From Fidelibacterota bacterium (lineage in GTDB: Bacteria > Fidelibacterota > Marinisomatia > SCGC-AAA003-L08 > TS1B11), in assembly GCA_004124295.1 (NCBI GenBank), contig SCKI01000001.1, forward strand, positions 372,001 to 436,000: a stretch of DNA of 64,000 nucleotides, written 5' to 3'. Of the stretch, positions 6,174 to 37,227 are shown piece after piece (positions within the stretch are counted from its first letter, which is position 1; each line of letters begins with the position of its first letter). Under the pieces are notes generated by a model. The model was not told the DNA's origin and did no database searches. It saw only the letters and a program-made list of their open reading frames with translations. The position numbers and the translations under genes are program-made.

Positions 6174-6431
6174 TCATACCTAATTTAATACGGTTCCCAA
6201 TATGGGAACAAGTATAATTTGGCATTACTAGCGGTTTTTACATGGTTCAAATGCTTGCGAGTACTGACAGAATCGAACAGCGCATGCCCAATTTTCCCTT
6301 CCAATTCAATCTCCGTCTTAATCCAACACAACATATCGATTCAAAGAAAAACAATCGACACATTCCATTGATATGTCGATCCCATCGCCCTATATTTGAG
6401 ACGTGTATACAATCTTTTGCGGAATCGACAT

Positions 6432-7544
6432 ATGAGCACCTTTCGCCCTGATAAGCCATTTAATGACCTGCCGCTTCTGCCTCCGGCAAAAGAGATAGAG
6501 ACAAATCGGATACTGAAGGATTGCATTGGGGCTCATCGAGCCCTGGCGCACCTCAAACAGGCAGGAAGGCTCATCCCGAATCAAAACGCATTGATAAATA
6601 CCATTCCCATGCTGGAGGCTCAGTCCAGTTCTGCCATTGAGAATATTGTCACCACTGCCGATGCCCTTTTTCGCCACGCCGATGATACGTCTACGGCTGC
6701 CGATGCCGCTACTAAAGAGACCTTGCGCTACCGGACGGCGCTCCGGGCAGGATACGAAAACCTCAGCCAGCGGCCCCTAAGCACAAGAACGGCCATTGAG
6801 GTTTGCAGCGCCATACGGGGGGTGGATACGGACATCCGCCGAACGCCCGGCACCGCATTGACCAACCAGGCAACCGGCGAAGTGATCTATACGCCACCTG
6901 AAGGGGAACCCAAGCTGCGGGACCTCATGCAAAATTGGGAGCGGTTTATCCATGAGCAGGAGCAGATTGACCCCCTGGTGCGCATGGCCGTGATGCACTA
7001 CCAGTTTGAGGCCATACACCCCTTTACCGATGGAAATGGCCGCACGGGGCGCATCATGAATCTGCTGTTCCTCATTGAGCACGACCTACTGGAAATCCCC
7101 GTTCTCTATCTAAGCCGCTACATCATTCAGCACAAGGATGATTATTACCGCCGACTGCTTGAGGTAACCACGCAAGACGCCTGGGAGCCTTGGATACTCT
7201 TCATGCTTGAAGCGATAGAGCAGACGGCCACCTGGACGAACGCGCGTATTCTACTGATCCGGCAGCTTCAGCAGCATACGGCAGAATTCATCAGAGCGCG
7301 GAAACCGAATCTCTATTCTGCCGAACTCACGGATGCTATTTTCATTCAACCCTATTGCCGCATCGGAAATCTGGTGGATACGGGCCTCGTTAAGCGCGAG
7401 ACGGCTTCCAAATATCTCAAGCAACTTTGTGAAATTGGCGTGCTGGAGGAAATCAAGGCCGGTCGTAATAAGCTCTTTGTCCACCCCAAGTTCATTAAGG
7501 TGCTCACACAGGACGCAGACGCCTTCACCGAATATCCCCGCTAA
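6432..7544 (+). CDS. Fic family protein (AMP-transferase type)
   Basis: Predicted nucleotidyl- (usually AMP-) transferase acting on protein hydroxyl groups. The catalytic loop HPFTDGNGRTGR (196-207) is a full match to HxFx(D/E)GNGRxxR. The inhibitory helix motif SSAIEN (about 66-71) is N-terminal, marking a class II self-inhibited Fic. The N-terminus fits the Fic_N domain, and a winged-helix segment (VDTGLVKRETASKYLKQL) closes the protein. The frame is open from 6396, but ATG at 6432 gives the normal MSTFRPDKPFND start. The stop overlaps the start of the next gene (TAATG), implying translational coupling. It is the usual chromosomal/island type, with no separate antitoxin needed. Confidence 0.92.
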   Translation: MSTFRPDKPFNDLPLLPPAKEIETNRILKDCIGAHRALAHLKQAGRLIPNQNALINTIPMLEAQSSSAIENIVTTADALFRHADDTSTAADAATKETLRYRTALRAGYENLSQRPLSTRTAIEVCSAIRGVDTDIRRTPGTALTNQATGEVIYTPPEGEPKLRDLMQNWERFIHEQEQIDPLVRMAVMHYQFEAIHPFTDGNGRTGRIMNLLFLIEHDLLEIPVLYLSRYIIQHKDDYYRRLLEVTTQDAWEPWILFMLEAIEQTATWTNARILLIRQLQQHTAEFIRARKPNLYSAELTDAIFIQPYCRIGNLVDTGLVKRETASKYLKQLCEIGVLEEIKAGRNKLFVHPKFIKVLTQDADAFTEYPR

Positions 7545-11237: not shown

Positions 11238-14200
11238 ATGTACACACGTCTAATTGACGAATCCTCATTAGATAATTGGGTAAGAGGCAATCCCGAGCTT
11301 GCTAAGGGCGCGATTGTTGACTTGGTTTCAGCGTTAGTCAAGGCCTCATCTCCGGAACCCAATGATCGTCGATTTCCATCCTCAGATAGTATTAACCAGA
11401 CAGGGCAAGATGGGTACTTAGATGCGGTTATTGAATTTAAACCGTATGTACCAATTGGAAAGTCATATTGGGAGATAGGTGCTGGTGGGGAGAATGAAGC
11501 AAAAATAAAAGAAAAAGCAAGTAAGGACTACAGTGGGCGAACTAGAAAAATCCCAAAAAATATAAGAGATGAGTCGACATTTATTTTTATCACACCACGT
11601 TCCGGCCAGAAAGGGTGGACAACCGACTCTCAGAATGTTTGGTTGGATGAAAAAAAAGAGCGCGGTGAATGGAAGGAAGTAAAGATTATCGACGGAACAC
11701 GATTGGTCGATTGGCTGGGTCATTTCCCTGCAGTAGAAGGCCGGTTCGCAGCAAAGATGGGCAAGTATTTTGAGGGGCTGCAGCCACTTGAATTACGCTG
11801 GGAAGAGCTCAGGACCATAGGAGAGCCCCCTCCTCTTCCGCCAAAGATATTTCTTATTTACCGTGGTGATGCTGTTGATAAACTAAAAAGTATCTACTCA
11901 AAAAATAGCAACAGTTTAAAACTGTTGACTCACTACGAAGATCAAGTTGCAAACTTTGTTGCTGCTTATGTTGCATCAATTGAGGATGCAATGGTACCAG
12001 GAACTGTAGGTCGAAGTTTGATTGTATCAAATCCTGACAGTTGGCGAGCGGTTGCGAATCTCACGACCCCACATATATTCATCGCGGATTTTGATATTGA
12101 GGATACGAATGAGGCGGGAACAAGACTTCTCGAGATTGCCCGTCAAAAGGGACATGCTGTGGTATATCGCGGTAGAGTGGGAGGGATACCTGACCCGAGT
12201 AGTGTTGATTTACCGAATCCAACCAGACTTCGTCTCGAGGAGGCATTGAGGGAAGGAGGCTATTCGGAGAGTAGGTCCCGATTACTCGCAAATAAGTCTG
12301 CGGGAAAGCTAAATGTTCTTTTAAGACTATTACAAAACCTATCACCAATGCCGGGGTGGGCGAGTGGAGATGCAGCTTCCGACCTAGCAATCGCACAGCT
12401 GCTCGGCGCATGGAATGAGGAGCGGGATGAGGATAGAGCCACGGTTGAGAAACTAGTGGGAAAAGAATATGGGGAGTGGATCGGAACGATGCGTGAGGCA
12501 ACCAATCTACTGGACACTCCCCTTACTCATAAAGAGAATGTCTGGAAATTTTCAAGTCGATATGAGGGTTGGTTTGCTCTGGCTGCACATATTTATGACA
12601 GTCACCTGAAGCTCTTTGAAGTGATTGCAATTGAGGTACTCGGTGAGAAGGATCCAAAATTTGAGCTGCCCCTGGACCAACAGTATATGGCGATTGTGAA
12701 GGGCAAAGATTTTACCCACTCAAAGCAAATACGAAAAGGAATCGCTACAACATTGGCATTGCTCGGAAGCTATCCCGAACCTCTAAAACAACATTGCTCT
12801 ATGTATCTACCGGAGATCGTCGCCAACGAGGTTGTAGAGAATCTTTTCAAAGGTGCTGATGGCATAGTATGGGCAAGTCTGAATGATTTGTTACCTCTGT
12901 TTGCCGAAGCTGCGCCGGAGGTCTTTCTCAAATCTGTGGAACAGGCGATGATGGCCACTCCTTCACCTTTTATTGATGTATTTGCCCAGGAGAGTACCGC
13001 TATTTTCGGATGGAATTACATGACGGGGCTCTTATGGGCACTAGAGCTATTGGCTTGGAATGAAGAATATCTATTACAGGTAATCATTACTCTGGGTGAA
13101 CTCGCAGAACTGGACCCGGGAGGTACTTGGGCAAACCGACCCAAAAACTCAATTTGGAGCATATTGCTACCCTGGAAGCCCCAGACTTGTGCATCAATTG
13201 AAAAAAGACAATCTGCGGTCAAAACCCTATTAACAGAAATACCGGCTGTTGGCTGGCAGTTGGTAATCGATTTAATCGATTCAAATCAAAAAATCACTAC
13301 CGGAAATTATAAACCATTATGGCGCAATTGGATTCCCGATGACTGGAAAACCACGGTTACGACGAAAGAATATTATCAGCAACTGAGGATATACGAAAAG
13401 ATCGCGATTGAAGAGGCAGTGTATTCGAGCGAGAGGATCCTTGATATTTGCAACCTTCTTGACAAGTTCAGTCCTATCACACGAGCACAAGTAATTTCCA
13501 TCCTCCAATCAGAAGTGGTGATGAAATTTCCAGAAGACGAGCGAAATAAAATTTGGACAAAATTGTTAGATATCGTAACGAATCACAGGAAGTATGCCGA
13601 CGCCGATTGGGCGATGGATTCTGAGTTTGTGAATGAAATTGCGGATATAGCCAACATATTATCTCCAACCTCCGCTGCCATAAAATATCTTCGCCTCTTC
13701 GTTGAGGACGATTATAGTCTATTTGGAGATGGTGATAATTTTGAGCAGCAACAAATCGATCTCTCGAGCATCCGCATTGATGCCATTGATGAAATCTTCA
13801 ATGAAGGTGGCCCAGCAGGTGTACAGGAATTTGCTCAAGCCGCTGAATCATCGTGGAAAGTAGGCTGGACATTAGGCAAGAGTAATTTAAGTCTTGAAGA
13901 TTATATTCTCCCCAAACTTCTTGATTCGGAGGACAGAAAAGACCAGATTTTTCTGGGGTCATTCCTGGAATCGCGAGTTCAAGAAAGGGGCTGGGATTGG
14001 TTTGATTCCTTAATTAATCGTAAGTGGTCTTCTTCGCAAATTGGCAGAGCTCTGGGTTTCTTACCCTTCACCGATGAAACATGGTTGAGGGTCGAAAATC
14101 TTCTTAGAGACGAGGAGGAACAATATTGGACCACGGCAAACGTGAATCCGTATAGATATGAAGGATCCTTTGAACGAGCTATTGATTCGCTGATCAAATT

Positions 14201-15050
14201 TGGTAGACCCTATGAAGCGATAGCATGTCTAAACGCCACATTGTCTGCAAAAAAAGAAATTAGTACAAAACAGGCTATCGCTGCTTTGAACGGAATCCTT
14301 AGTGCCCCGATCGCCAATAAGCTACAAGGCATGAATGAATACCACATCCAACAGATCATAAAGAATCTCCAAGAGAGTACTGAAGTAACTCCTGAAGAAA
14401 TGATAAACATTGAATTCGGATTTTTGCCGCTTTTCCAGCTCAATGATGATATTTATCCAAAGACCATCGAACAAGACTTGGCTACAAATCCAGAATCATT
14501 TTGTGAATTAATTCGGATCCTGTACAGATCAAAAAAGGATGTCAAACAGGTCGAACCTTCAGAGGAGCAAAAAGCGATAGCAACCAGGGTCTGGCATCTG
14601 TTGAATGATTGGAGAATTGTCCCAGGTACAGATCAGGATGGTAGTTTTAATGGAAAATTGTTCGAAATATGGCTTAAGAAAATGAAGGCTTCTTGCACTG
14701 AATCCGGGCATCTTGACCCGGCGATGATTCACACGGGGCAGGTCTTAATACATGCGCCTGGTGATCCAAATGGTCTATGGATTCACACTTCAGTTGCAAA
14801 CGCACTAAATGCAAAGGACGCAGGGGATATGAGAAGTGGATTTAGCACAGCACTGTTTAATTCGCGCGGCACTCATTTTGTTGACCCTGAGGGCAAGCCC
14901 GAAATGAAACTAGCCCAAAGCTACTTTGATCAGGCTGATTCTGTGGAGGCAGTCAGCTTCCAGAGATTAGCGAGAACACTAAAACAATTGGGAAAGTCAT
15001 ACGAAAGGGAAGCCGAACGGATTAGAGATCAAGACCCATTCGACGATTGA
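11238..15050 (+). CDS. giant protein with nuclease-like head and STAND-like/helical body, probable defence protein
   Basis: 1270 residues. The head (about 1-190: GQDGYLDAVIEFKPYVPIGK, YWEIGAGGENEAK, SGRTRKIP, FIFITPRSGQKGW, LVDWLGHFPAVE) matches, from memory, a nuclease-like domain at the front of large uncharacterised bacterial proteins. Residues 200-360 look like a STAND/NACHT-type region without a P-loop: SLIVSNPDSWRAVANL, then PHIFIADFDI, GHAVVYRG, and an arm ending LANKSAGKLNVLLRLL. The rest is an alpha-helical, repeat-like sensor scaffold. It stands as a single-gene unit in the island, with a GATGGT-type leader rather than a clear SD. A one-gene anti-phage system is likely but unproven (inference). 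Confidence 0.75.
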   Translation: MYTRLIDESSLDNWVRGNPELAKGAIVDLVSALVKASSPEPNDRRFPSSDSINQTGQDGYLDAVIEFKPYVPIGKSYWEIGAGGENEAKIKEKASKDYSGRTRKIPKNIRDESTFIFITPRSGQKGWTTDSQNVWLDEKKERGEWKEVKIIDGTRLVDWLGHFPAVEGRFAAKMGKYFEGLQPLELRWEELRTIGEPPPLPPKIFLIYRGDAVDKLKSIYSKNSNSLKLLTHYEDQVANFVAAYVASIEDAMVPGTVGRSLIVSNPDSWRAVANLTTPHIFIADFDIEDTNEAGTRLLEIARQKGHAVVYRGRVGGIPDPSSVDLPNPTRLRLEEALREGGYSESRSRLLANKSAGKLNVLLRLLQNLSPMPGWASGDAASDLAIAQLLGAWNEERDEDRATVEKLVGKEYGEWIGTMREATNLLDTPLTHKENVWKFSSRYEGWFALAAHIYDSHLKLFEVIAIEVLGEKDPKFELPLDQQYMAIVKGKDFTHSKQIRKGIATTLALLGSYPEPLKQHCSMYLPEIVANEVVENLFKGADGIVWASLNDLLPLFAEAAPEVFLKSVEQAMMATPSPFIDVFAQESTAIFGWNYMTGLLWALELLAWNEEYLLQVIITLGELAELDPGGTWANRPKNSIWSILLPWKPQTCASIEKRQSAVKTLLTEIPAVGWQLVIDLIDSNQKITTGNYKPLWRNWIPDDWKTTVTTKEYYQQLRIYEKIAIEEAVYSSERILDICNLLDKFSPITRAQVISILQSEVVMKFPEDERNKIWTKLLDIVTNHRKYADADWAMDSEFVNEIADIANILSPTSAAIKYLRLFVEDDYSLFGDGDNFEQQQIDLSSIRIDAIDEIFNEGGPAGVQEFAQAAESSWKVGWTLGKSNLSLEDYILPKLLDSEDRKDQIFLGSFLESRVQERGWDWFDSLINRKWSSSQIGRALGFLPFTDETWLRVENLLRDEEEQYWTTANVNPYRYEGSFERAIDSLIKFGRPYEAIACLNATLSAKKEISTKQAIAALNGILSAPIANKLQGMNEYHIQQIIKNLQESTEVTPEEMINIEFGFLPLFQLNDDIYPKTIEQDLATNPESFCELIRILYRSKKDVKQVEPSEEQKAIATRVWHLLNDWRIVPGTDQDGSFNGKLFEIWLKKMKASCTESGHLDPAMIHTGQVLIHAPGDPNGLWIHTSVANALNAKDAGDMRSGFSTALFNSRGTHFVDPEGKPEMKLAQSYFDQADSVEAVSFQRLARTLKQLGKSYEREAERIRDQDPFDD

Positions 15051-16993: not shown

Positions 16994-17034
16994 TAAAACT
17001 AAGAGACACATTTTAGGTTTTCAAGGTTTAGCTG
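16994..17034. repeat. direct repeat copy A
   Basis: Shares 18 exact bases (TAAAACTAAGAGACACAT) and then a GGTTTAGCTG block with 26343-26383, with about three quarters identity over some 60 bases. Could be the ends of a decayed insertion or of a nested 9.3-kb element. Confidence 0.55.
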
Positions 17035-17374
17035 CCGCCTCAATTGAAGAGTCCATGGTGAGGCTACGCCGAGGCCCTGGAACCGACGGATTATGAGTAG
17101 TAAGCGTCAGACGAGGATTTTCAAAACTTCGCAGTAATTGAACAGTTTTCTCGAGCGGTGGCTTAAAAGGACACAGGCTTATAGACGGGGGCAGGGTGCG
17201 AATGTGCAATAAAGGAGCAATGGTGTGCCTGCTGGATCCTAAATACAGAGGCTCACGACGAAGATGTGGGATTTGTTGCTGTTTTATCGCAATGTTGAAC
17301 CGATTAGAGGATAGTCACGAGCGGATAATAGTCCGTTGCTTATATGTATCTCCTCGGTAGAAAACAAAGCGCGC

Positions 17375-17437
17375 CGGACTCATAATCCTCCGTCCTCCCG
17401 TCGTGAAAAGAATAAAAGTGACAAAAAAGGGTGACAA
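17375..17437. other. probable relic attachment site at a tRNA-Met-like core
   Basis: GCGCCGGACTCATAATCC looks like the anticodon arm of tRNA-Met (CAU in loop CTCATAA). It is followed by CTCCCGTCGTGAAAAG and two spaced repeats (AGTGACAA, GGGTGACAA). The same order (core, CTCCCGA.., then two GGGACAA/AGTGACAA repeats) follows the tRNA-Phe core at 46141-46192 and the relic at 1171-1221, so this is probably the arm side of another integrated element. Confidence 0.4.
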
Positions 17438-17537
17438 TGAGCATCTATAACCCCCCAACTTTTGTGTCGGAACTCTGATGGCAATGATTCCGAGAATTGA
17501 TTATCTTACAGCTACACCCAATCGTTAAGAGGATAAT

Positions 17538-18422
17538 ATGCAGCTATCAAATGGCAACGGCGGTGACATCCCAGCGCTGGCGCCCTATCGGGAGATGGGT
17601 GCTTATGAAGCAATATGGAATAGAGATGGGATGTCGTTTAAAAAGGTCGCCGACCTTTTTCGGGACAATCCAAGCTTAACGGCTGCTGACTTAGTCGATG
17701 AAGATTTGGCATTTAGGACAGCAGATCAAGTGATGGAACTATTTACGGGGCAGGGAATAGACCGTTTTGGAGTTTCAATCAACGGTTCTTACGAATATCC
17801 TTCCAGGCTTCGCGATGCCCGGCACCCAGTTGAGTTCTTGTACTACCAGGGTGATTGGAATCTAGTTTTCGGGAGATCAGTAGCAGTAATTGGCACAAGG
17901 AATCCCACTCAAGAGGGGATATCTCGGGCGAGAAAGCTCGTAAGAAGTCTGGTTAAAGACGAGTTTATTATTGTATCGGGGCTTGCAACGGGTATAGATA
18001 CGATTGCTCATGAGACCGCAATTAAGCAGGGTGGCCGCACAATGGCGGTAATCGGGACTGCATTACACGGTAATTACCCCAAAGCCAACGCAAATCTACA
18101 GGCCGAGATTCGATCTGACCATCTATTGATCAGCCAGATTCCTGCATTACGTTATGATTCACAAGACTATCGTATCAATCGAAGGTTTTTCCCGGAAAGA
18201 AACGTAACCATGTCTGCCCTAACTGATGCATCAATTATTGTAGAGGCGGGCGAAACTTCAGGAACCTTGATTCAAGCAAGGGCCGCAATAGCGCAAAGCA
18301 GGAAATTATTTATTCTTGATAGCTGTTTTGAAAATCCCCGGTTGACTTGGCCCGCTAGGTTTGAAAAACTGGGGGCAGTCAGGGTCAGGGAATATAAAGA
18401 CGTGAGGGATAATCTCACCTAA
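17538..18422 (+). CDS. DprA/Smf-like protein (SLOG superfamily)
   Basis: 294 residues with the DprA Rossmann core: YPSRLRD, VAVIGTRNPTQEG (about 114-126), FIIVSGLATGIDTIAHETAI (139-158), then PERNVTMSALTDASIIVEAG and SGTLIQARAAIAQ. Classical DprA loads RecA on incoming ssDNA; the winged-helix C-terminus is missing, and the protein is paired with a phosphoribosyltransferase rather than competence genes. DprA-like proteins belong to the SLOG nucleotide-binding superfamily, which includes predicted conflict-system sensors. Start at ATG 17538 after AGAGGATAAT (SD GAGG). The stop at 18420-18422 abuts the PRTase reading frame (+1). Confidence 0.85.
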   Translation: MQLSNGNGGDIPALAPYREMGAYEAIWNRDGMSFKKVADLFRDNPSLTAADLVDEDLAFRTADQVMELFTGQGIDRFGVSINGSYEYPSRLRDARHPVEFLYYQGDWNLVFGRSVAVIGTRNPTQEGISRARKLVRSLVKDEFIIVSGLATGIDTIAHETAIKQGGRTMAVIGTALHGNYPKANANLQAEIRSDHLLISQIPALRYDSQDYRINRRFFPERNVTMSALTDASIIVEAGETSGTLIQARAAIAQSRKLFILDSCFENPRLTWPARFEKLGAVRVREYKDVRDNLT

Positions 18423-18537
18423 GAAACTCACGATAGTAGATCGGCTTACCCTCTCCGATCACTATTATCTCGATGATGACGATAATTGTTATTATCTCGG
18501 CGAGTACACGAAAGGCCAGGGGTTCGCCTTCAGTCCC

Positions 18538-19059
18538 ATGAATCAACAAATAGCCAATCTGAAAATTTTACAATCGGAGCGGGACAATCCAAGGTATCAC
18601 TATAAAGTGCAAGCGATTGATGGGTTTGCCGCAGATTTGGCGGGATGTTTAGCCGGGTCACGGTTACTGGAAAAGGAACCCACGTTCGTCGCGGTACCAC
18701 CTTCGCTCGGTAGGAACCACCCGGAGCACGACGATAGGATGATGCGCATTCTGCATGGTTTATCAGACAGGTTGGGCGGATTAGATGTAAGGGAGTTGAT
18801 AATCCAAAACGAAAGCATGGACCCAGTACATCTTGAGGATGGCCGCCGTCCACCCCCAGCGGTTTTGGCAGAGAATTACTCCATAAACGACGAGATAAAG
18901 CAGCCAGCCCCGGTGTATATTGTGGTGCTGGATGACGTTCTAACGACCGGCTCCCATTACAAAGGGGTAAGAATGCGGCTGAAAGAAGAATTTGGAAATA
19001 TCCCCGTCATCCGAATTTTCCTCGCTAGGAGGGTATTCATTGAAGAGGAGGGGCCCTGA
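18538..19059 (+). CDS. phosphoribosyltransferase-like protein, true start uncertain
   Basis: Type I PRTase fold: PPSLGRN in the middle and a PRPP-binding loop VVLDDVLTTGSHYKG (about 138-152 of the ATG form). The first ATG is 18538, but the same frame is open back to 18406 and encodes DHYYLDDDDNCYYLGEYTKG then GQGFAFSP, which matches the conserved N-terminus I remember for this PRTase family. No ATG, GTG or TTG exists in that stretch; start codons available are ATA or ATC, or a +1 shift from the end of the dprA-like gene (ACC TAA G). Together with the upstream gene it forms a two-gene unit, probably nucleotide-signalling or defence (inference). Confidence 0.8.
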   Translation: MNQQIANLKILQSERDNPRYHYKVQAIDGFAADLAGCLAGSRLLEKEPTFVAVPPSLGRNHPEHDDRMMRILHGLSDRLGGLDVRELIIQNESMDPVHLEDGRRPPPAVLAENYSINDEIKQPAPVYIVVLDDVLTTGSHYKGVRMRLKEEFGNIPVIRIFLARRVFIEEEGP

Positions 19060-19095
19060 GACGGGGCTTGTTTGGTCCCTTTTACCCTAAATCAG

Positions 19096-19272
19096 CTACT
19101 GCCCCGAAACCTGCTGCATTTCCTCCTTCACGGCCCTGACTTCGTCGTAAAACTGCTCCTTCGTGAAGATGCCTTTCTCAATTAACAGCCTCGTGATCGC
19201 TTCGCTCTGAACCAGGCCCGCATAGGCCAGCTCCTCTAGCGATATTGCTTCCCGATCGTCATCTTTTGACAT
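19096..19272 (-). CDS. 58-residue conserved small protein
   Basis: Short acidic helical protein: MSKDDDREAISLEELAYAGL, then QSEAITRLLIEKGIFTKEQF and a helical tail. The 'SLEELA...Q.EAI.RLLIEKGI.TKEEF' pattern is that of small uncharacterised proteins that recur in many genomes. Clean ATG start. It lies just downstream of the broken nuclease fragment (19281) on the same strand and may once have been its operon partner. Confidence 0.7.
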   Translation of the reverse strand: MSKDDDREAISLEELAYAGLVQSEAITRLLIEKGIFTKEQFYDEVRAVKEEMQQVSGQ

Positions 19273-19280
19273 TAGCCCCC

Positions 19281-19457
19281 CTAATCATCATCTGTCCCTG
19301 AAGTCACAAACCTTGCCCATACCGGTTTATGATCTGATATAGCATAACCCTGATCCTCTGTCAGACCAAATGAAGTCCAGAAAGCGTATACGCCGGCCTC
19401 TTCCGCGTATTCGGTGGTGTAGCCGCTCTGAAAGAGGATGTTATCATAGGCCCGGGC
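19281..19457 (-). pseudogene. C-terminal fragment of an endonuclease/exonuclease/phosphatase-family protein
   Basis: Translation YDNILFQSGYTTEYAEEAGV, then FGLTEDQGYAISDHKPVWAR. The ISDHKPVWARF end is the catalytic SDH motif of the DNase I-like (EEP) fold. The rest of the gene is missing; its front part is probably the piece at 21913-22269. In the present frame the fragment is fused to the stump of a membrane protein. Confidence 0.75.
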
Positions 19458-19648
19458 CCCTCTACCCGGATGAAAGCAATCGCAGCCACTAGAGGAAGTA
19501 AGCCCCGTTCAGGGCCCTCCGGGTAAGGCTCTATAAGACCTGAGCCAGTGAGGGTTTGGTATAATATTAGATGAAGAGGGAAGGCTGACAGTACTAGAGA
19601 TATTAGAGCCGCCGGAAGCACAAATACCCAACGTAGCCAGTTTGCCAT
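19458..19648 (-). pseudogene. truncated membrane protein
   Basis: MANWLRWVFVLPAALISLVL then EPYPEGPERGLLPLVAAIAF: an intact-looking N-terminus with one or two membrane segments that ends abruptly near 19458 and runs out of frame into the EEP fragment. A recombination junction is therefore visible at about 19455-19460. Confidence 0.55.
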
Positions 19649-19714
19649 ATCATGGACCTTATCTTCAATGAGGCTGTTTTGATATACTTTGGCAGGGCGA
19701 CACCTCAATAGTAC

Positions 19715-36660: not shown

Positions 36661-37227
36661 CTATTTTGCCTCAAGAGATCGTGCCTTGGCATACGCGCTC
36701 ATCTTATTGATGAGCAGCGTTCGGTATTTGGCATCTAGCGTCAGACTATCCTCCAGCATACTGTGGATCTCAGGGATGTCTTCATAGGTGGAAATCGACA
36801 GTCAGTTCCAGACATAGCCGCCTCTACCAGCGGCTGTGAACTGCTGACCCGATTGCTGCGGGCCATTCATGGTCAATATCATCAGTTTGTTGGGTTCCTG
36901 GGGCATTTCGAAGGCTGCAATGCTGCTCCCTATCGTGAATATGGGCGTGATCTCTGGTAGGTCTGCTTGAACGGTGAGGTTCCATTTGTTGAGTAGCTGA
37001 TTGCCCATTCCCGGGCTGATGATGCCCAGTTTTTCATTGAAGTATTTCAGGTATGTCTCGGGCGCTTGACGCGGTTCGAGTTGATACCACAGGAAGAACT
37101 CAGGTTTTATGCGATTTGATCTGCCTTTCCTGGTGATTTCCGGATGATTTGCCGACGCGATGATTCAGTAGTCGTGGTGTCTTGTATCGAAGCCCGTGTT
37201 GCGGGCTGGGTTGAATATGTATTCCAT
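36661..37227 (-). pseudogene. 189-codon gene with two in-frame TGA codons
   Basis: One uninterrupted frame from ATG 37227 to TAG 36661 except for TGA at codon 21 (37165-37167) and codon 142 (36802-36804). Both fit a Trp: the text reads RHHDY-TGA-IIASANHPE and GGYVWN-TGA-LSISTYED. Other Trp codons here are TGG, so two TGG-to-TGA changes or readthrough are the simplest options. If intact, a soluble 188-residue protein of unknown family that fits the operon spacing. The longest TGA-free piece starts at ATG 37008. Confidence 0.6.

What the first reader, a model, noticed from the sequence alone, without database searches (positions are those of the whole stretch)
17538..19059. DprA-like plus phosphoribosyltransferase pair with a missing start codon
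The PRTase frame is open and clearly protein-like from 18406, but no ATG/GTG/TTG is present before 18538. The conserved part (DHYYLDDDDNCYYLGEYTKG) lies upstream of 18538. Explanations: a rare ATA/ATC start, a +1 frameshift at ACC TAA G from the dprA-like gene (giving a fused protein), or a lost start. A fused SLOG-PRTase made by frameshifting would be new.
Basis: partly seen in the sequence, partly recalled or inferred. Interest (0 to 1): 0.68.

Follow-up and report, generated by a model that had tools for sequence, protein, structure and literature searches.

The report
ShosTA pair, toxin lacking normal start
This is a bacterial toxin-antitoxin (anti-virus) gene pair of the known ShosTA kind whose toxin gene has no ordinary start signal; the toxin is probably started, weakly, at a rare start codon such as AUC or AUA, or else it has recently been switched off, and there is no support for a fused protein made by frameshifting.

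Summary
In detail: the PRTase frame is open from 18406 and has no ATG/GTG/TTG until 18538. The pair is ShosA (17538-18422) and ShosT (about 18412-19059). In 75 non-duplicate homologues from many phyla and phages the two genes are separate, nearly always overlapping, and every intact ShosT has a canonical start before its first conserved motif. The window junction aligns without gaps to rhizobial pairs. Their ATG is ATA here (18394), followed by an in-frame TGA (18403). This speaks against an indel error and against a fusion. Starting at 18538 would remove a predicted beta strand and invariant residues. ShosT shows no faster decay than ShosA. The same genome starts other genes with AUU/AUA: infC (ATA; non-canonical in most relatives), metH (ATT, same position in the sister genome) and a GST (ATT). 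Best reading: ShosT starts at AUC 18412 (or AUA 18409) next to GAGGG, at low efficiency, keeping toxin below antitoxin. Recent start loss and a base error in the draft assembly remain open. Shine-Dalgarno evidence is only suggestive.

The parts
17538..18422 (+). shosA: DprA/SLOG-family antitoxin gene, ATG start, TAA stop
   Evidence: PADLOC ShosA PDLC03961 E 7e-95; Pfam DNA_processg_A E 1.7e-54; below the NCBIfam dprA cut-off; PDB hit to ShosA 9vzo E 4.9e-23
18412..19059 (+). shosT: phosphoribosyltransferase-fold toxin gene, 215 codons if started at ATC 18412 (frame open from 18406)
   Evidence: PADLOC ShosT PDLC03962 E 3.7e-39; AF2 mean pLDDT 94.8; Foldseek top hits are solved ShosT 8zvc/8zvd/8zvb, then ComF
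18412..18414 (+). ATC: most likely start codon of shosT (inferred), 11-nt overlap with shosA
   Evidence: the near-cognate codons at the expected N-terminus are ATA 18409 and ATC 18412; GAGG core ends 4 nt before ATC; aSD duplex -7.8 kcal/mol
18409..18411 (+). ATA: alternative start codon, directly behind GAGGG
   Evidence: sequence; spacing after GAGG only 1 nt
18404..18408 (+). GAGGG: possible Shine-Dalgarno element inside shosA
   Evidence: own 16S tail GGATCACCTCCTTTCT; a duplex this stable occurs before 10.5% of random sites and 23% of ATG starts, so weak evidence
18394..18396 (+). ATA at the position of the ATG start of rhizobial shosT
   Evidence: gap-free alignment of the junction with L034, L035, L042, L043
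18403..18405 (+). in-frame TGA that cuts the ancestral start site off from shosT
   Evidence: sequence
18538..18540 (+). first canonical ATG of the shosT frame; not a credible start for a working protein
   Evidence: lies after strand 25-33 of the model and after invariant/near-invariant D24, C26, G30, E31, Y32, T33 (numbered from 18412)

Best explanation
The locus is a two-gene ShosTA toxin-antitoxin/anti-phage pair. The antitoxin ShosA is translated normally from ATG 17538. The toxin ShosT is most likely translated as a separate protein from a near-cognate AUH codon, AUC at 18412 (less likely AUA at 18409), within the last codons of shosA. It would be reached by ribosomes translating or ending shosA at 18420 and helped by the GAGGG at 18404-18408. 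Such starts are normally held low by IF3, so ShosT would be made at a fraction of ShosA, which suits a toxin whose antitoxin is encoded first. Shown: gene identities, absence of a canonical start, the need for the N-terminal part, and the presence of AUU/AUA starts elsewhere in this genome and genus (by sequence comparison). Inferred: that ShosT is translated at all, which codon is used, the coupling, and the dosage effect.
For: ShosA and ShosT profiles match strongly. 75 homologous pairs are separate genes with their own start for ShosT. The N-terminal 42 residues are predicted ordered (block pLDDT 87-97, strand 25-33) and hold invariant residues. Window ShosT deviates at 6 of 38 conserved columns, the same as other deep members (2-12), and its tip branch against ShosA's (1.39 vs 1.15) is not stretched relative to the family medians (0.33 vs 0.20). 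Precedents in the same genome: infC starts ATA behind AGGAG, and infC shows no canonical start in 26 of 30 genomes examined, its own included. metH starts ATT with GGAG and has the same ATT in the sister genome G001 at about 79% identity. A GST starts ATT behind AGGAGG where relatives have ATG. Literature precedent: AUA/AUU starts in S. aureus give about 10% of AUG output (PMC13009471); the GTC start of sigR keeps sigma below its antisigma partner (PMC5472188).
Against: No expression data. A GAGG at this spacing is common by chance, and AUH codons show no genome-wide SD enrichment. No other ShosT homologue lacks a canonical start. ShosT departs from near-invariant positions (P96A and K101L, numbered from 18406), which could mean impaired activity. 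No close relative carries the locus, so conservation of the start cannot be tested.
Confidence: 0.52

Rival explanations
1. ShosT has recently lost its start: the toxin is silenced while the antitoxin is kept, and the open frame has not yet had time to decay.
For: The ancestral ATG position is ATA and is followed by an in-frame TGA; no other homologue lacks a start; near-invariant P96 and K101 are changed.
Against: 217 codons without stop or frameshift; conservation and branch length normal for the family; codons fitting the N-terminal family pattern (P-K-K-L beside P-Q-R-L) continue past the lost start.
Confidence: 0.28
2. A single wrong base in the draft assembly hides a canonical start (for example at one of the AUH codons).
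For: The genome is a 23-contig draft of unknown read type; homologues have plain starts.
Against: Both reading frames stay in register with homologues, so no indel; substitution errors are rare in assemblies (general knowledge); metH shows the same ATT in an independent genome, so such starts are real in this genus.
Confidence: 0.12
3. ShosA and ShosT are joined by +1 frameshifting at ACC TAA G into a fused SLOG-PRTase.
For: shosT lies in the +1 frame of shosA and the frames abut.
Against: The same +1 relation occurs in most homologues, which have their own shosT start; no fused homologue among 75; ACC to CCU re-pairing has a first-position mismatch and no prfB-like SD lies at the short spacing that promotes shifting (sequence; general knowledge of prfB).
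Confidence: 0.03
4. ShosT starts at the first canonical ATG, 18538, as a 173-residue protein, as an annotation pipeline would call it.
For: It is the first ATG in frame.
Against: It would lose 42 residues with an ordered strand and invariant C26, Y32 and near-invariant D24, G30, E31, T33.
Confidence: 0.03

Closest known systems
ShosTA toxin-antitoxin / anti-phage system (DprA-like antitoxin plus PRTase toxin)
   Same: Both PADLOC profiles match; gene order shosA-shosT and short overlap as in enterobacterial, rhizobial and phage pairs; the model's best solved matches are ShosT structures
   Different: No ATG/GTG/TTG for shosT; proteins only about 31-45% (T) and up to 58% (A) identical to any homologue found; the solved ShosT chains are about 400 residues, this one 215
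DprA-PRTase system of P2-like phages (PMC9122126)
   Same: DprA-like protein next to a PRTase, proposed sensor/antitoxin and effector
   Different: Here on a chromosome-scale draft contig with no phage context established; start codon
infC, pcnB and S. aureus ccpN/cvfC1 near-cognate (AUU/AUA) starts; Streptomyces sigR GTC start
   Same: Translation proposed from a non-AUG/GUG/UUG codon giving low output; in sigR-rsrA it sets the ratio of an interacting pair
   Different: Those starts were shown experimentally; here it is inferred, and the gene is a toxin overlapping its antitoxin

Membership tests
ShosTA | ShosA: DprA/SLOG-family antitoxin | tested here: met
   PADLOC ShosA E 7e-95, Pfam DNA_processg_A
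ShosTA | ShosT: PRTase-fold toxin with DDVLTTG-type PRPP motif | tested here: met
   PADLOC ShosT E 3.7e-39; LDDVLTTGS present; Foldseek to ShosT 8zvc E 2.3e-6
ShosTA | adjacent, co-directional, overlapping genes | tested here: met
ShosTA | toxicity of ShosT neutralised by ShosA; phage protection | not testable with these tools
   needs expression assays
Near-cognate (AUH) start gene | no canonical start before conserved N-terminal residues | tested here: met
Near-cognate (AUH) start gene | AUH codon with SD, conserved in relatives | tested here: inconclusive
   GAGG 4 nt before ATC but common by chance; no close relative with the locus
Near-cognate (AUH) start gene | initiation shown by peptide or ribosome profiling | not testable with these tools
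   no such data
+1 programmed frameshift gene | slippery site, stimulator and conserved fused architecture | tested here: not met
   separate starts in homologues, no fusion in 75 pairs; site re-pairs poorly

The most novel reading that the evidence does not exclude
In this lineage a defence toxin is throttled by an AUC/AUA start codon that IF3 discriminates against, so that toxin output follows IF3 level or ribosome stress (for example during phage takeover), as part of a wider use of AUH starts in the genus (infC, metH, GST).
Probability: 0.2. Interest if true: 0.6.

Novelty: new member of a known kind. Interest (0 to 1): 0.36.

Why it matters
If ShosT starts at AUC/AUA, gene callers truncate or miss such toxins, and start-codon choice becomes a simple way to hold a toxin below its antitoxin, testable with one-codon reporter changes in a laboratory strain. 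The metH AUU start shared by two genomes of the genus is itself a concrete, checkable case of a rare start in a core metabolic gene. If instead the start was lost, it is an ordinary snapshot of toxin silencing.

Tried and rejected
Frameshift fusion: no fused homologue, independent starts, poor slip site. Start at 18538: removes conserved ordered residues. Indel error: frames in register with homologues. Pervasive AUH use in the genome: rejected, since AUH codons upstream of genes carry no more SD than other codons. Hexamer coding score for shosT was uninformative (foreign codon usage). The first genome-contig scan with the window protein alone found no relative; the PADLOC ShosT profile over the phylum mostly returned matches at the weak level expected of ordinary PRTases, and rang in 13 of 14 control genomes. 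In one search the rows labelled 18427, 18430 and 18433 carry codon names off by one codon; those rows were not used.

Full report
Observation. The frame that encodes the phosphoribosyltransferase-like protein is bounded upstream by TGA at 18403-18405 and runs to TGA at 19057-19059. It holds no ATG, GTG or TTG until 18538. The DprA-like gene is 17538-18422 with ATG and TAA.

What the genes are. PADLOC calls the first protein ShosA (E 7e-95) and the second ShosT (E 3.7e-39). Pfam gives DNA_processg_A for ShosA and nothing for ShosT. A model of ShosT from 34 aligned sequences has mean pLDDT 94.8. Its best solved neighbours are three entries of the ShosT/ShosTA work, 8zvc, 8zvd and 8zvb, followed by ComF. 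DprA-PRTase pairs are known anti-phage systems, and shosTA is described as a toxin-antitoxin system with the DprA homologue as antitoxin (PMC9122126). The defence or toxin function of this copy was not tested.

The start. The ShosT profile aligns from the seventh codon of the open frame. Residues encoded between 18412 and 18537 include a predicted strand (25-33) and invariant or nearly invariant residues D24, C26, G30, E31, Y32, T33 and S41, numbered from 18412. A start at 18538 is therefore not credible for a working protein.

Comparison with homologues. 76 non-duplicate ShosT rows, the window included, were collected from plasmids, phages, GTDB genomes and IMG/VR. ShosT follows shosA in either the +1 frame, mostly with 8-56 nt overlap, or the +2 frame, mostly with a 4-nt overlap. 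Every intact upstream stretch has ATG, GTG or TTG; rows the script skipped because the motif pattern failed were read codon by codon. The window junction aligns without gaps to rhizobial pairs. Their ATG (GAATATGACGAC) corresponds to ATA in the window (GAATATAAAGAC, 18394), and the window has a TGA three codons later. Since both frames stay in register, an insertion or deletion error is unlikely. In the viral-contig locus L096 the TTG start falls at the window's 18415, next to ATC 18412.

Is ShosT decaying? At 38 columns conserved in at least 85% of the others, the window departs at 6, within the range of other deep members. Two departures, P96A and K101L (numbered from 18406), are at otherwise near-invariant positions. 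Tip lengths in the two gene trees are 1.39 (T) and 1.15 (A), against medians of 0.33 and 0.20, so ShosT is not accelerated relative to ShosA. This argues against an old pseudogene but not against a recent loss of the start.

Does this organism use such starts? In about 790 kb of the same genome (617 coding frames) few genes have coding signal before their first canonical start. Three cases are convincing, infC being found separately. infC reads TAG CCC ATA GCG AAG with AGGAG eight bases before ATA; in 26 of 30 genomes of the wider group infC likewise shows no canonical start. metH reads GGAGATTTGA ATT TTC, with the first canonical codon only at position 51, inside the catalytic domain (Pfam match from residue 20). 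The sister genome G001 has ATT at the same place behind AGGAG. A glutathione-transferase-like gene reads AGGAGGCTATC ATT TAT AAA where relatives have ATG TAT AAA. Non-canonical infC starts are well known (PMC5472188). The metH case, shared by two genomes, is the best support that AUH starts work on other genes here. A statistical test found no general SD enrichment before AUH codons, so these are exceptions and not a rule.

Which codon. ATC 18412 and ATA 18409 are the near-cognate codons at the expected N-terminus. GAGG ends four bases before ATC and one before ATA, so ATC is preferred. The duplex with the 16S tail is -7.8 kcal/mol, but 10.5% of random sites and 23% of ATG starts do as well, so this is weak. 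Coupling to termination at 18420 is likely from the overlap and is inferred.

Mechanism and rivals. A near-cognate start would make ShosT at a small fraction of ShosA. AUA and AUU starts give about a tenth of AUG output in S. aureus (PMC13009471), and a GTC start holds Streptomyces SigR below its antisigma partner, under IF3 control (PMC5472188). I put this at 0.52, recent silencing at 0.28, a base error at 0.12, and frameshift fusion and the 18538 start at 0.03 each. Frameshifting fails because homologues in the same frame relation start ShosT on their own and none is fused.

Verdict. A ShosTA pair with a genuinely missing canonical start; ordinary as a system, mildly unusual in its start.

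Noticed in passing
own genome G000:C1:109302-112733 (-), L142/L165; L167 in sister genome G001: metH has no ATG/GTG/TTG before its catalytic motif; an ATT start behind GGAG is conserved at the same place in the sister genome (79% identity). Two further family members (L168, L171) also lack a canonical start before the conserved N-terminal residues.
   Followed up: partly
own genome G000:C15:76679-77191, L124/L203; L204-L232: infC starts with ATA here and shows no canonical start in 26 of 30 genomes examined (ATA, ATC or ATT at the expected place), the known IF3 autoregulation pattern.
   Followed up: yes
own genome G000:C1:341274-341900, L132/L195: Glutathione-transferase-like gene with ATT behind AGGAGG where relatives have ATG.
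   Followed up: partly
own genome G000:C1:579166-580179 (-) and G000:C5:6214-6600 (-): In-frame TGA at selenocysteine-like positions: SHGSG-TGA-ACK (SelD-like) and SDYI-TGA-PFCY (DsbA/FrnE-like), suggesting that the organism makes selenoproteins.
   Followed up: no
window 6396-7544 (+): Fic-domain protein matching PADLOC SoFic (E 9.6e-121), a second candidate defence gene about 10 kb from shosTA.
   Followed up: no
window 11238-15050 (+): 1270-residue protein with no Pfam, NCBIfam or PADLOC match, between the Fic gene and shosTA.
   Followed up: no
window 36802-37164 (-): Coding-like frame of 120 codons with no canonical start for the first 52 codons, beginning ATC ATC after TGA.
   Followed up: no
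window 17000-19700: shosTA and flanks are 46-51% G+C against 59% for contig C1, consistent with horizontal gain; no ShosT in 99 related genomes by protein search.
   Followed up: partly
L035, L042, L043: Rhizobial shosTA pairs sit beside a second, convergent DprA-PRTase pair with a longer PRTase (about 415 aa).
   Followed up: no
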